From: an uncultured Bacteroidales bacterium
Lineage (GTDB): Bacteria; Bacteroidota; Bacteroidia; Bacteroidales; F082
Reading direction: 5' to 3'
Length of the DNA stretch: 64,000 nt
Assembly: GCA_905233685.1 (NCBI GenBank)
Contig: CAJOEZ010000001.1
Span: 93,569 to 157,568, forward strand
Under the pieces are notes generated by a model that saw nothing but the letters and a program-made list of their open reading frames with translations, was not told the origin of the DNA and made no database searches. Below are positions 18,064-59,742 of this stretch, in pieces (positions within the stretch are counted from its first letter, which is position 1; the number at the start of each line of letters is the position of its first letter). A program made the position numbers and the translations under genes.

Positions 18064-19800
18064 ATGTCTACACCTTTATTAATAATACGCGACCTCCACG
18101 TTTCTTTCGCCCGCGACGGGCAATGGAGCGAAGCTGTACACGGCATTGATTATGAGGTGTTTGTAGGCCGCACCTTGGGCATCGTGGGCGAGTCGGGTTC
18201 AGGCAAGTCGGTCAGCTCGCTCGCTATCATGCGCCTGCTCAACGAGAAACAAAGCCGCATCAAGGCCGGAAGCATCCTCCTCGAAGGCGAGGAAATCAAA
18301 GATTTTGACGAAAAACAAATGGCCGGCGTGCGCGGAAAACGCATCGCCATGATTTTCCAGGAGCCCATGACCTCGCTCAACCCTGTCTACAAATGCGGTT
18401 TTCAGGTGTCGGAGATGATTTTGCAACACGAAAGCAGGTCGGCCCTTCGACAGGCTCAGGGACCTCCCGTAAGCAAAACCGAGGCCAAACGGCGCGTCAT
18501 CGAGCTGTTCAAGCAGGTGATGCTGCCGCGACCCGAGGCCATCTACAACAGCTATCCGCATGAGCTTTCGGGCGGGCAAAAACAACGCGTGATGATTGCC
18601 ATGGCCATCGCCTGCAAGCCAAAAGTGCTCATTGCCGACGAGCCGACGACCGCTTTAGACGTCACCGTGCAGTTGGAAATCCTGAAGCTTTTGCGCCAAT
18701 TGCAGGCCGAAACGGGCATGGGCATGATTTTCATCACCCACGACCTTGGCGTGGTGGCCGAAATCGCCGACGACGTCGCCGTGATGCACAACGGTGAAAT
18801 CCTCGAACGCGGCGCCGTGGCCGACATCTTGAACCACCCAAAGCACCCTTACACCCAAGGATTGCTGGCCTGCCGTCCGCCCATGGGCGTGCGACTCAAG
18901 CGGCTGCCCATCGTCAAGGAGTTTTTGGATGGCCAATGGCAAGGCGGCAAGGAACAGATTCTTAACGACTTGCAAATCCTCCCCAAAGAAAGGAAACAGC
19001 ATTTGGAAACACTCTACAGCCGCGAGCCGCTCTTAAAGGTGGAGCATCTGAAGACCTGGTATCCGCTGCGCAAGGGTATATTAAATAAGGTGTATGGCCA
19101 CGTGAAGGCCGTCGACGACGTGAGTTTGGAGGTTTTCGAAGGCGAAACCCTCGGCTTGGTGGGCGAATCGGGCTGCGGCAAGACTACCCTTGGACGCAGC
19201 ATTTTGCGCTTGGCCGAACCTACCGGTGGTAAGGTTTGGTTCGATGGCATCGATGTTACAGCCTTGAAAGGCAGCGACTTGCGCAATTTCCGCAAGCAGG
19301 CGCAAATCGTGTTCCAAGACCCCTACTCTTCCCTCAACCCGCGCATGACCATTGGGGAGGCTATTGCGGAACCTATGAAGGTGCATGGCGTTTTTCACAG
19401 GGACGCCGTTTGCGACCTGTTGGAACAAGTCGGGCTGCAAGCGGCTCATTACGACCGCTATCCCCACGAGCTTTCGGGCGGACAGCGGCAAAGGGTTTGC
19501 ATCGCCCGCGCCTTGGCCGTCAACCCGCGATTAATCATCTGCGATGAGTCGGTGTCGGCCTTGGATGTCAGCGTGCAGGCGCAGGTGCTCAACCTGCTCA
19601 ACCGCTTGAAACAGGAGCGCAACCTCACCTACATCTTCATTTCGCACGACCTCGGCGTGGTGCGCTTCATGAGCGACCGCGTTGTGGTAATGTTCAACGG
19701 AAAACCCGTGGAGATGAACGACGCCGACGCCTTGTTTGAGCATCCACAAAATGCCTACACGCAGAAATTAATTGATGCTTTACCAGGGAAGAGTTTGTAG
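18064..19800 (+). CDS. Oligopeptide-type ABC transporter, two fused ATPase domains (DppD-DppF/YejF type)
   Basis: A 578-residue protein with two complete ABC modules. Module 1 has Walker A GESGSGKS near residue 43, signature LSGGQKQR near 168 and Walker B VLIADEPTTALD. Module 2 has Walker A GESGCGKT near 367, signature LSGGQRQR, and Walker B LIICDESVSALD, in which Glu-Ser replaces the usual Glu-Pro. The oligopeptide_HPY segment after module 1 (HPKHPYTQGLL) marks the di/oligopeptide family. Permeases and binding protein are not adjacent. The start is ATG 18064, since upstream in-frame codons lie before the promoter. Residues about 125-134 (RSALRQAQGP) come from a palindromic repeat inserted in frame between the Q-loop and the signature. 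Confidence 0.9.
   Translation: MSTPLLIIRDLHVSFARDGQWSEAVHGIDYEVFVGRTLGIVGESGSGKSVSSLAIMRLLNEKQSRIKAGSILLEGEEIKDFDEKQMAGVRGKRIAMIFQEPMTSLNPVYKCGFQVSEMILQHESRSALRQAQGPPVSKTEAKRRVIELFKQVMLPRPEAIYNSYPHELSGGQKQRVMIAMAIACKPKVLIADEPTTALDVTVQLEILKLLRQLQAETGMGMIFITHDLGVVAEIADDVAVMHNGEILERGAVADILNHPKHPYTQGLLACRPPMGVRLKRLPIVKEFLDGQWQGGKEQILNDLQILPKERKQHLETLYSREPLLKVEHLKTWYPLRKGILNKVYGHVKAVDDVSLEVFEGETLGLVGESGCGKTTLGRSILRLAEPTGGKVWFDGIDVTALKGSDLRNFRKQAQIVFQDPYSSLNPRMTIGEAIAEPMKVHGVFHRDAVCDLLEQVGLQAAHYDRYPHELSGGQRQRVCIARALAVNPRLIICDESVSALDVSVQAQVLNLLNRLKQERNLTYIFISHDLGVVRFMSDRVVVMFNGKPVEMNDADALFEHPQNAYTQKLIDALPGKSL
18437..18465. repeat. Palindromic repeat family 1, in frame inside ABC ATPase gene
   Basis: The core TTCGACAGGCTCAGGGACC, preceded by GGTCGGCCC, is shared with 30481-30509, 31433-31479 and 59700-59742. 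Here it is a single half element read as RSALRQAQGP. Confidence 0.85.
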
Positions 19801-19890
19801 TTGGCAGTTAGCAGTTTGCAGTTGTTTAGTTGAGATTAACTGAAAACTGATAACTGAAAACTGAAAATTGATAACTGGTAACTGAAAAAT
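19801..19890. repeat. Short-motif intergenic array (AACTGAAAACTGATAACTG type)
   Basis: Degenerate copies of AACTGAAAACTGATAACTG preceded by GCAGTTAGCAGTTTGCAGTT. It is related, on the opposite strand, to the CAGTTTTCAGTTTTCAGTT stretch at 6624-6655. It fills the gap between the ABC ATPase and the pseudouridine synthase promoter. Confidence 0.7.
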
Positions 19891-19893
19891 TTG

Positions 19894-19901
19894 TATTTTT
19901 G
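19894..19901 (+). promoter_or_regulatory. -7 element for the pseudouridine synthase gene
   Basis: TATTTTTG, with a TTG 23 bases upstream (19868-19870) as a possible -33 element; ATG follows 34 bases later. Confidence 0.5.
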
Positions 19902-19935
19902 CCGCCCTTTTTACACACATTAATACCTAAATTCA

Positions 19936-58319: not shown

Positions 58320-58327
58320 TACATTTG
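58320..58327 (+). promoter_or_regulatory. -7 element for trkA
   Basis: TACATTTG, a match to TAnnTTTG, 20 bases before the ATG at 58348. Confidence 0.45.
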
Positions 58328-58347
58328 CGCTTTAAAACAGAATCAAT

Positions 58348-59688
58348 ATGAACATAGTAATAGCTGGAGACGGAGAAGTAGGCCTGCATCTGGCCGAAGC
58401 TTTGGTGCGCAGCAACCATGACATCACCATCGTGGATCCGCACGAGGAACTGCTGAAAATGATGGAATCGCACAGCGACTTGATGACCATCACGGGCGAT
58501 TCCACCTCGACCGCCGTGCTGCAACGCGCCAACGTGAAACACGCCGACTTGGTCATCGCCGTGTTGCACGACGAGCATATCAACCTGCTGACGGGCATCA
58601 TCGCCAAGAAACTCGGCGCGAAGAAGGTCATCGCCCGCGTCAACACAATGGAAAACCTCAGTCCGGAAGTGTGGCGAATGTACCAAGACCTCGGCATTGA
58701 CGGGTTACTCTCGCCGGAAGACATTGCCGCTCAGGAGATTATCTCGCTACTGAAACAGAACGCCTCGTTGGAAACCTACGACTTCTCGGGTGGCAAATTG
58801 CAGCTCTTCATGGTGAAGCTCGAATCGGAGGCCGAAATCCTCGGCAAGACCGTCGACGAGGTCATCAACCAATACGAGCACATTGAGTTCCGCATCGCGG
58901 CCATCCACCGCCGCCAAAGCACTTTCATCCCCCAAGGTGAGGACGTGTTCCAAATGGGCGACATGGTGTATGTAGTCACCAAGCCGCACGCCGTCAAGGA
59001 CATCATCAAGCTGAGCGGCAAGAAGAAAATCAACATCCACAACGTGATGATTGTGGGCGGCGGACGTGTGGGAAGAATCACAGCAAAACGTTTGGAAAAC
59101 GAATTGAATATCAAGGTGTTGGAAAACAACAAAGAACGCTGCATGGACCTCACCAACTACCTCTCTGAGGCCTTGGTGGTGAACGCCGACGCACGCGACC
59201 TCGATCTCTTGGAAGACGAGGGCATCAAAGATATGGACGCCTTCATCGCCGTGACCAACAACACCGAGACCAACATTCTTACCTGCCTGCAAGCCAAGTC
59301 GTTCGGCGTAAAAAAGACCATCGCCCTCGTCGAGAACATCGACTACATCGACATCTCGCAGAACATCGGCATCGACTCCATCATCAACAAGAAGCTGATT
59401 GCGGCGAGCTATATGGTCAAATACACCTTGGGCGCCAAGGTCTCCTCACTGAAGTGCCTCAGCGGCATCGACGCCGACATCGTCGAGTTTGACGTCAGAG
59501 CAGGCTCGGCAGTGACACGCAAGCCCATCGGCCAGTTGGCCATGCCCAACGACGCCATCATCTGCGGCATTACCCGCGACGGTGAGAGTTTCATCGCCAC
59601 CGACGACTTCCAAATCGAGACCGACGACCTAGTGGTGGTGCTGGCCCTGCCTAACGCCATTCCTACAGTTGAACGCTTATTCCACTAA
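58348..59688 (+). CDS. trkA: Trk potassium uptake regulator TrkA
   Basis: A 446-residue protein with two tandem RCK modules. Each has a Rossmann NAD site (IVIAGDGEVGLHLAEAL near residue 3 and VMIVGGGRVGRITAKRLE near 233) and a following C-domain (about 140-225 and 365-446). It gates TrkH by nucleotide and NADH binding. It is followed by a palindromic repeat and trkH. Confidence 0.94.
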   Translation: MNIVIAGDGEVGLHLAEALVRSNHDITIVDPHEELLKMMESHSDLMTITGDSTSTAVLQRANVKHADLVIAVLHDEHINLLTGIIAKKLGAKKVIARVNTMENLSPEVWRMYQDLGIDGLLSPEDIAAQEIISLLKQNASLETYDFSGGKLQLFMVKLESEAEILGKTVDEVINQYEHIEFRIAAIHRRQSTFIPQGEDVFQMGDMVYVVTKPHAVKDIIKLSGKKKINIHNVMIVGGGRVGRITAKRLENELNIKVLENNKERCMDLTNYLSEALVVNADARDLDLLEDEGIKDMDAFIAVTNNTETNILTCLQAKSFGVKKTIALVENIDYIDISQNIGIDSIINKKLIAASYMVKYTLGAKVSSLKCLSGIDADIVEFDVRAGSAVTRKPIGQLAMPNDAIICGITRDGESFIATDDFQIETDDLVVVLALPNAIPTVERLFH

Positions 59689-59699
59689 AACAGACGGCG

Positions 59700-59742
59700 T
59701 TTCGACAGGCTCAACGGCCTTAGGTCCCTGAGCTTGTCGAAA
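59700..59742. repeat. Palindromic repeat family 1 between trkA and trkH
   Basis: TTTCGACAGGCTCA at 59700-59713 and TGAGCTTGTCGAAA at 59729-59742 form inverted arms around a short spacer; outer ends are CGGCC and GGCC. Same family as 18437, 30481 and 31433. Confidence 0.88.

What the first reader, a model, noticed from the sequence alone, without database searches (positions are those of the whole stretch)
18437..59742. Palindromic repeat family read in frame inside three unrelated proteins
Seen directly: the DNA core GGCCCTTCGACA(A/G)GCTCAGGGACC occurs at 18437 (ABC ATPase), 30481 (GYDIA kinase), 31433 (mvaD) and, inverted, at 59700 between trkA and trkH. In all three genes it is translated in the same frame as SALRQAQGP, between conserved motifs, and the host frames stay open. 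Established: Rickettsia palindromic elements behave this way, but their sequence is different. Inference: this is a mobile short repeat able to spread into coding sequence while keeping the host open.
Basis: partly seen in the sequence, partly recalled or inferred. Interest (0 to 1): 0.85.

Follow-up and report, generated by a model that had tools for sequence, protein, structure and literature searches.

The report
Mobile hairpin translated inside enzyme genes
A DNA hairpin of about 30 letters occurs more than a hundred times in the genome of a gut bacterium of ruminants, and in about half of its places it sits inside a protein gene, where it adds a short peptide and leaves the reading frame open; it likely spread as mobile DNA and was probably kept only in reading frames and protein loops that tolerate it.

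Summary
The core TTCGACARGCTCA has 117 exact copies in the 3.08-Mb assembly and 0-201 in 59 genus-mates. Flanking triplets covary (96 of 108 fully complementary, 9 types; shuffles at most 50): a real hairpin family. Outside genes it is mostly inverted pairs 2-13 nt behind a stop codon; inside genes mostly single units. SALRQAQGP is not the only frame: 34 independent single intragenic units read GPSTGSGT 19, SALRQAQGP 8, (V)PEPVEG 5, others 2 (p 2e-6). No clear gene-breaking copy among 151 clusters, 11 unclear. Relatives show insertion: 19 of 23 readable ABC loci lack it; the same mvaD loop holds it forward, reversed, as a pair or not at all; two GYDIA-kinase loci carry a CGTC-type REP at that site. 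No Y1/RAYT transposase among 85 examined is bracketed by it, so the mobiliser is unknown. It works like Rickettsia palindromic elements and intragenic REPs, already in print, but lacks the GTAG/CGTC tag and a RAYT: a new variant of a known kind.

The parts
18436..18468 (+). Unit inserted in the ABC ATPase gene (core 18446-18458), read RSALRQAQGPP; 33 nt more than in orthologues without it
   Evidence: exact borders uncertain by a few bases
17974..19800 (+). Host 1: double ABC ATPase, dipeptide-transporter type, 608 aa
30480..30548 (+). Inverted pair inside the GYDIA kinase gene: core 30490-30502 (+) read SALRQAQGP, core 30527-30539 (-) read VVEPVETP
29985..30968 (+). Host 2: GYDIA-family GHMP kinase, 327 aa
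   Evidence: 335 bits, cut-off 225
31433..31479 (+). Nested units in mvaD: outer arms 31433-31445 and 31471-31479, inner unit 31446-31470 (core 31450-31462); read GPSALRQAQGPTGT
   Evidence: simple forward form in relatives such as L101
31008..32111 (+). Host 3: diphosphomevalonate decarboxylase (mvaD), 367 aa
59693..59748 (.). Inverted pair between trkA and trkH: cores 59701-59713 (+) and 59729-59741 (-), starting a few bases behind the trkA stop
58348..59688 (+). Gene with TrkA-N and TrkA-C domains, directly upstream of the pair
59758..61221 (+). Gene with TrkH domain, directly downstream of the pair

Best explanation
This is a REP-like family of short dispersed DNA hairpins, likely mobile and likely copied by an enzyme acting in trans that I could not identify, whose copies lie either just behind stop codons or, in frame, inside protein genes. 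Shown by sequence: a unit is CGG-NNN-TTCGACARGCTCA-N'N'N'-A-CC(T) with a covarying stem and a fixed 13-nt core; units often pair as inverted repeats; some sit nested in the core of another unit; in the three window hosts they are insertions relative to orthologues; host frames stay open; frame use is biased towards GPSTGSGT, SALRQAQGP and (V)PEPVEG. Inferred: a new unit is copied as single-stranded hairpin DNA into gene ends, gene bodies and older hairpins; cells in which this breaks a gene or a rigid protein core are lost; what remains are units in flexible loops, in frames that give soluble, flexible peptides. Loop alleles then pass between species by homologous recombination.
For: 117 exact cores, 95 strict copies against 0 in the reversed control. 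Covariation of the stem: 96 of 108 with fully complementary triplets, 9 types, shuffle mean 38, maximum 50; 39 of 47 intragenic cores too. Pair folds with z -7.1. Multi-unit clusters are inverted pairs in 36 of 40 (G000) and 41 of 44 (G032). In 54 of 64 gene 3' ends beside a non-intragenic cluster the distance is 2-13 nt. Frame bias, 34 single units: 19, 8, 5, 1, 1, p 2e-6; the same order in G032 alone (14, 3, 4, 2, 1 before joining sites). Insertion against orthologues: 19 of 23 readable ABC loci, 5 of 24 mvaD loci and 2 of 13 readable GYDIA loci without any insert. Nested copies: 8 places in G000, 4 in G032, 3 in named relatives. mvaD insert (residues 146-154) lies in a stretch with pLDDT below 50 between two helices. 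Mosaic mvaD genes.
Against: No transposition, target duplication or within-species polymorphism was observed or tested. No mobiliser: 85 Y1 loci examined, none bracketed by the element. A single unit folds no better than shuffles (z -0.16 and 0.38; nested form 0.27). Single units lie in genes nearly as often as random windows (25 of 35 and 24 of 32, against 477 of 600), which a strong filter against frame breaks would not predict by itself. Some sites are shared by G000 and G032, so many insertions are old. 11 of 151 clusters are unclear. Genomes are metagenome assemblies. The loop reading rests on one usable model; the GYDIA model failed.
Confidence: 0.78

Rival explanations
1. The element is the cognate REP of a RAYT (REP-associated tyrosine transposase) or other Y1 transposase of this genus and is moved by it.
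For: PF01797 genes occur in 28 of 28 genomes with 19 or more cores and 14 of 32 with fewer; strong relatives of the G000 RAYT in 12 of 28 and 0 of 32; rank correlation of copies with PF01797 count 0.60, still 0.36 after genome size is taken out. The G000 protein passes NCBIfam's REP_Tyr_transpos cut-off (81.2 against 80).
Against: Of 85 distinct Y1 loci examined (of 131 PF01797 matches; one gene was scanned twice), 3 have a core within 500 nt, on one side only, at 134-413 nt. The 12 RAYT loci printed have, by eye, palindromes of other sequence beside them. Many copy-rich genomes have no RAYT relative at all, e.g. G082 and G003. Relatedness of the genomes was not corrected for.
Confidence: 0.12
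2. The core is a DNA-uptake-type signal: a short word enriched because DNA carrying it is taken up, with inverted pairs behind genes.
For: Fixed 13-nt core, inverted pairs behind genes, orientation bias inside genes (28 sense, 6 antisense, p 0.008), mosaic genes around the copies. Orientation bias of uptake sequences is stated in the abstract listing of PMC2346458.
Against: Copies come as insertions of about 24-50 nt with a covarying stem; copy number is about a hundred, not the hundreds to thousands given for uptake sequences (PMC2346458 abstract listing); competence genes were not searched.
Confidence: 0.06
3. The copies are kept for a job, for example as mRNA 3'-end hairpins between genes or as useful linkers in proteins, rather than tolerated as spreading DNA.
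For: Tight position behind stop codons (54 of 64 at 2-13 nt), strong pair hairpins, some sites conserved between two species.
Against: Copy number falls to 0-6 in many genus-mates; loop states at mvaD and GYDIA change among close relatives, including none.
Confidence: 0.1
4. Ancestral protein sequence, chance or assembly artefact.
For: None beyond the shared sites noted above.
Against: Orthologues without the peptide; different frames, orientations and another REP at one site; no shuffled or reversed matches; many independent assemblies agree.
Confidence: 0.01

Closest known systems
Intragenic REPs of the GTAG and CGTC superfamilies (Di Nocera et al. 2013, PMC3733652; abstract, sections 5, 6, 15, 17 part 1 and passages read)
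   Same: Short dispersed hairpins, dimers of inverted units, many next to gene 3' ends, some inside ORFs and translated; alternative complementary stems; different REPs at about the same site in Xanthomonas recB genes; CGTC repeats are reported in Bacteroidetes
   Different: No GTAG or CGTC tag here; a fixed 13-nt core with a short variable stem instead of short loops; about half of the clusters are in genes; several frames compared across many species of one genus
Rickettsia palindromic elements, RPE (Ogata et al. 2000, cited in PMC2229807; passages read)
   Same: Palindromic, in intergenic places and in frame inside conserved protein genes (19 reading frames in that account)
   Different: RPEs are given as 105-146 bp; the unit here is about 25-30 nt
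RAYT-associated REPs and BIMEs (Nunvar et al. 2010, PMC2817692; abstract start and passages)
   Same: Inverted pairs; the Coxiella burnetii REP of its Table 1 has the middle TGAGCTTGCGAA, one base short of TGAGCTTGTCGAA here: a lead, not a test
   Different: There RAYT genes are always flanked by two inverted REPs; here no examined Y1 gene is bracketed by the element
DNA uptake sequences (abstract listing of PMC2346458; rest recalled)
   Same: Short fixed core, orientation bias in genes; inverted pairs behind genes (recalled)
   Different: Here insertions with a covarying stem, and far fewer copies

Membership tests
REP / BIME, generic | Palindromic unit of about 20-40 bp | tested here: met
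   Covarying 3-bp stem plus two G-C pairs beyond a bulged A, around a 13-nt core; but a single unit folds no better than shuffles
REP / BIME, generic | High copy number (over 100 per genome in the abstract of PMC2817692) | tested here: met
   117 exact cores; genome 86% complete
REP / BIME, generic | Units in alternating orientation | tested here: met
   36 of 40 and 41 of 44 multi-unit clusters are inverted pairs
REP / BIME, generic | Mostly extragenic, near gene 3' ends | tested here: inconclusive
   Outside genes yes, 54 of 64 gene ends at 2-13 nt; but 37 of 75 and 36 of 76 clusters are classed intragenic
GTAG/CGTC superfamilies | Unpaired GTAG or CGTC at one end | tested here: not met
   Within 11 nt of the stem on either side: GTAG in 6 and CGTC in 2 of 108 (side counts summed)
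GTAG/CGTC superfamilies | CGTC: stem 8-9 bp, loop 4-5 nt, CCA tail | tested here: not met
   Five-pair stem with bulge, 13-nt core, end ACC(T)
RAYT-associated REP | RAYT gene flanked by two inverted copies | tested here: not met
   None among 85 distinct Y1 loci, 12 strong RAYT relatives included; 46 of 131 PF01797 matches not examined
Rickettsia palindromic element | In-frame insertion in conserved protein genes | tested here: met
Rickettsia palindromic element | Length 105-146 bp, Rickettsia | tested here: not met
   Unit about 25-30 nt, pair about 57 nt, Bacteroidales
DNA uptake sequence | Preferential uptake of DNA carrying it | not testable with these tools
   Needs transformation assays

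The most novel reading that the evidence does not exclude
A tagless hairpin family with a fixed core and a covarying stem, moved by an enzyme that is not a RAYT, keeps recolonising the same loops of core enzymes in different frames and orientations, so that these loops act as docking sites where mobile palindromes of more than one family supply new peptides, which species then trade as cassettes by recombination.
Probability: 0.33. Interest if true: 0.75.

Novelty: new variant of a known kind. Interest (0 to 1): 0.5.

Why it matters
Protein-coding palindromes are known from Rickettsia and as intragenic REPs in several other species. Here one genus of ruminant-gut Bacteroidales offers many species with up to about 200 copies each, a good part of them inside core enzymes, so that open questions become testable by comparison: how mobile DNA enters genes without killing them, which reading frames survive, whether the added peptides are neutral, and how one protein loop comes to hold unrelated inserts in sister species. 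Topoisomerases, MurB, a polyprenyl synthetase, mevalonate-pathway enzymes and peptide-import proteins carry them. It is also a REP-like family for which I found no transposase.

Tried and rejected
A RAYT or IS200-like mobiliser was the first idea; copy number correlates, but the flanks do not fit. Rfam: no match in the window at gathering scores. Phage records: no match; plasmids: one weak match, E 0.4, Sphingobium (query was the trk pair only). The GYDIA fold is unusable, mean pLDDT 49.8. Exact-sequence literature searches found no paper. mvaD loop states need at least 11 changes on a gene tree without the loop, but the genes are mosaic, so I do not read these as 11 insertions. Target-site duplications were not studied.

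Rows dropped or not seen: 8 intragenic clusters at ORF edges or in short ORFs were left out of the frame test (73 to 65, joined to 48 site families, 34 of them single units). 9 of 117 exact cores in G000 lie outside fetched loci. In G032 only the 100 listed of 152 strict copies were followed, and clusters within 100 nt of a locus end were skipped. ABC loci are the 30 best-scoring of 60 genomes, 7 unreadable at the site; one of 14 GYDIA loci was a fragment. Host domains were looked up for 28 of 35 intragenic ORFs of G000. 19 of the 86 Y1 loci scanned gave no HUH ORF to my motif; each was scanned whole for cores and one (L160) had a one-mismatch core. The two loci L107 and L110 come from the same assembly.
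Full report
Observation. Two further cores complete inverted pairs at 30490/30527 and 59701/59729, and the mvaD copy is a unit nested in another.

Genome. The window lies in a 3.08-Mb assembly, 86% complete. Its nearest named relatives are uncultured Bacteroidales and Bacteroidia, several titled as from goat, roe deer or water buffalo gut. The strict pattern TTCGACARGCTCARBG has 95 copies and none in the reversed control; the bare core has 117. In the genus sample 55 of 60 genomes, own included, have at least one core. 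In a phylum sample the strict pattern occurs in 79 of 395 genomes, own included; outside the own genome the counts are at most 17 except for 203 in one genome of another order, G454.

Anatomy. Of 108 exact cores in fetched loci, 96 have fully complementary flanking triplets of nine kinds (CCC/GGG 57, CGT/ACG 17 and so on), against a shuffle mean of 38 and maximum of 50; two further pairs lie beyond a bulged base in 100 and 96 of 108. The unit is CGG-NNN-TTCGACARGCTCA-N'N'N'-A-CC(T). Inside genes 39 of 47 keep this, which explains peptide variants such as GPSTGSGT, GVSTGSTT and GASTGSAT. One unit alone folds no better than shuffles, a pair strongly (z -7.1).

Placement. Of 75 clusters in G000 and 76 in the 99%-complete relative G032, 37 and 36 are classed intragenic: single units in 25 of 35 and 24 of 32, multi-unit clusters in 12 of 40 and 12 of 44. 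Random windows of 29 and 65 nt in the 64-kb window are classed intragenic in 477 and 444 of 600. So pairs avoid genes, and single units are in genes nearly as often as random windows. Of the other 78 clusters 57 lie between ORFs, 10 inside another plausible ORF and 11 are unclear; in 54 of 64 cases the gene's 3' end is 2-13 nt from the element. I saw no clear broken gene, judged by ORFs and codon use only; the unclear ones were not resolved.

Frames. The unit is open in five of six frames. After leaving out edge cases and joining orthologous and paralogous sites, 34 single units read GPSTGSGT 19, SALRQAQGP 8, (V)PEPVEG 5, FDRLR-type 1, SLSLSK-type 1 (p 2e-6 against equal use of the five; sense 28, antisense 6, p 0.008). 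Hosts with known domains include GyrB/ParE-type and type I topoisomerases, MurB, polyprenyl synthetase, UDP-GlcNAc 2-epimerase, a GDP-mannose-dehydratase-type enzyme, a ketoacyl synthase, an OppC-type permease, a solute-binding protein and type IX secreted proteins. Two tested hosts had no Pfam match (L084:6248-7609, L078).

Relatives. At the ABC site 19 of 23 readable loci have no insert; the window's own locus (L121) and three others do, with 30-51 nt gained. A homologue with a solved structure also lacks it. At the mvaD site the 24 close-relative loci (76-90% identity) carry a forward unit (8), a nested forward one (1), a reversed one (7), a pair (3) or none (5); three loci outside the genus have none. 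At the GYDIA site 13 readable loci have a pair (5), a single reversed unit (4), nothing (2) or the peptide DCFVPRNDAKRQ (2), whose DNA read backwards is CGTC-ATTGCGAGGAACGAAGCAAT-CCA. This fits the tag, AT start and CCA tail described for CGTC REPs, though not their full stem; matching DNA with up to one mismatch occurs in 29 of 60 genus genomes. Some sites are shared by G000 and G032. The mvaD genes are mosaic: L102 and L110 are 92-100% identical, mostly 97-100%, in 60-nt blocks away from the loop, 52-69% at the loop, and 85-93% just behind it; a forward unit stands in one and a reversed unit in the other, with different flanks. So the loop states need, by inference, at least three origins, but their spread includes recombination.

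Structure. The mvaD model (mean pLDDT 75) matches solved MvaD. Residues 146-156, which hold SALRQAQGP (146-154), are below pLDDT 50 and lie between helices 120-143 and 160-170. The GYDIA model failed.

Mobiliser. PF01797 genes occur in 28 of 28 genomes with at least 19 cores and in 14 of 32 with fewer; strong RAYT relatives in 12 of 28 and 0 of 32; part of this goes with genome size. The flanks speak against them: of 85 distinct Y1 loci (of 131 matches) 3 have a core within 500 nt, on one side only, and the RAYT genes printed have, by eye, other palindromes beside them. The mobiliser stays unknown.

Known context. I read the abstract, sections 5, 6, 15, part 1 of 17 and passages of PMC3733652, passages of PMC2229807 and PMC2817692, and listings only for the rest. 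Intragenic, translated REPs and RPEs are in print, and so is one case of different REPs at about the same site of a gene; the phenomenon is therefore not new. I found no paper with this sequence in the open-access library, nor, from listings, one on coding palindromes in Bacteroidales. Compared with the GTAG/CGTC superfamilies the tag, stem and loop differ and no RAYT is attached, so I call it a new variant of a known kind.

Noticed in passing
L181-L183, L185-L192, L201: RAYT genes of this genus have their own palindromes beside them, of at least three sequence types, e.g. TCAATCTGCGRGACGCAGATTGCGACAATGA, GGCCTGCAATCGGCCCGATTGCAGG and GGTTCGCAAGCGTCCCGCTTGC (by eye).
   Followed up: partly
L095 and L096, GYDIA kinase gene; genus genomes: A CGTC-type REP (GATTGCTTCGTNCCTCGCAATGAC) is present in 29 of 60 genus genomes and its numbers rise with those of the element (rank correlation 0.71).
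   Followed up: partly
G454 (phylum sample): A 6.4-Mb genome of another order in the class has 203 strict-pattern copies.
   Followed up: no
G000 C3:14288, C9:116632, C9:213665, C15:17880, C27:42979: Copies sit at like sites near the C-termini of a family of similar secreted proteins, so gene duplication carries the element along.
   Followed up: partly
window 312-328, 3017-3033, 45193-45209, 47196-47212: TTTCCTAATTTTGCGGC-like 17-mers in front of genes look like Bacteroidetes promoters (recalled).
   Followed up: no
window 2898-2959, 6621-6762, 19838-19877, 45748-45773: Intergenic low-complexity repeats of the AACTCCTAACT and TTTTCAGTT kind.
   Followed up: no
window 20103-20589: A run of repeats of about 27-30 nt inside an ORF, rich in Asp and Arg codons.
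   Followed up: no
window 10115-10597 and 10917-11405: Two near-identical stretches about 805 nt apart (274 nt at 95% and 212 nt at 92%).
   Followed up: no
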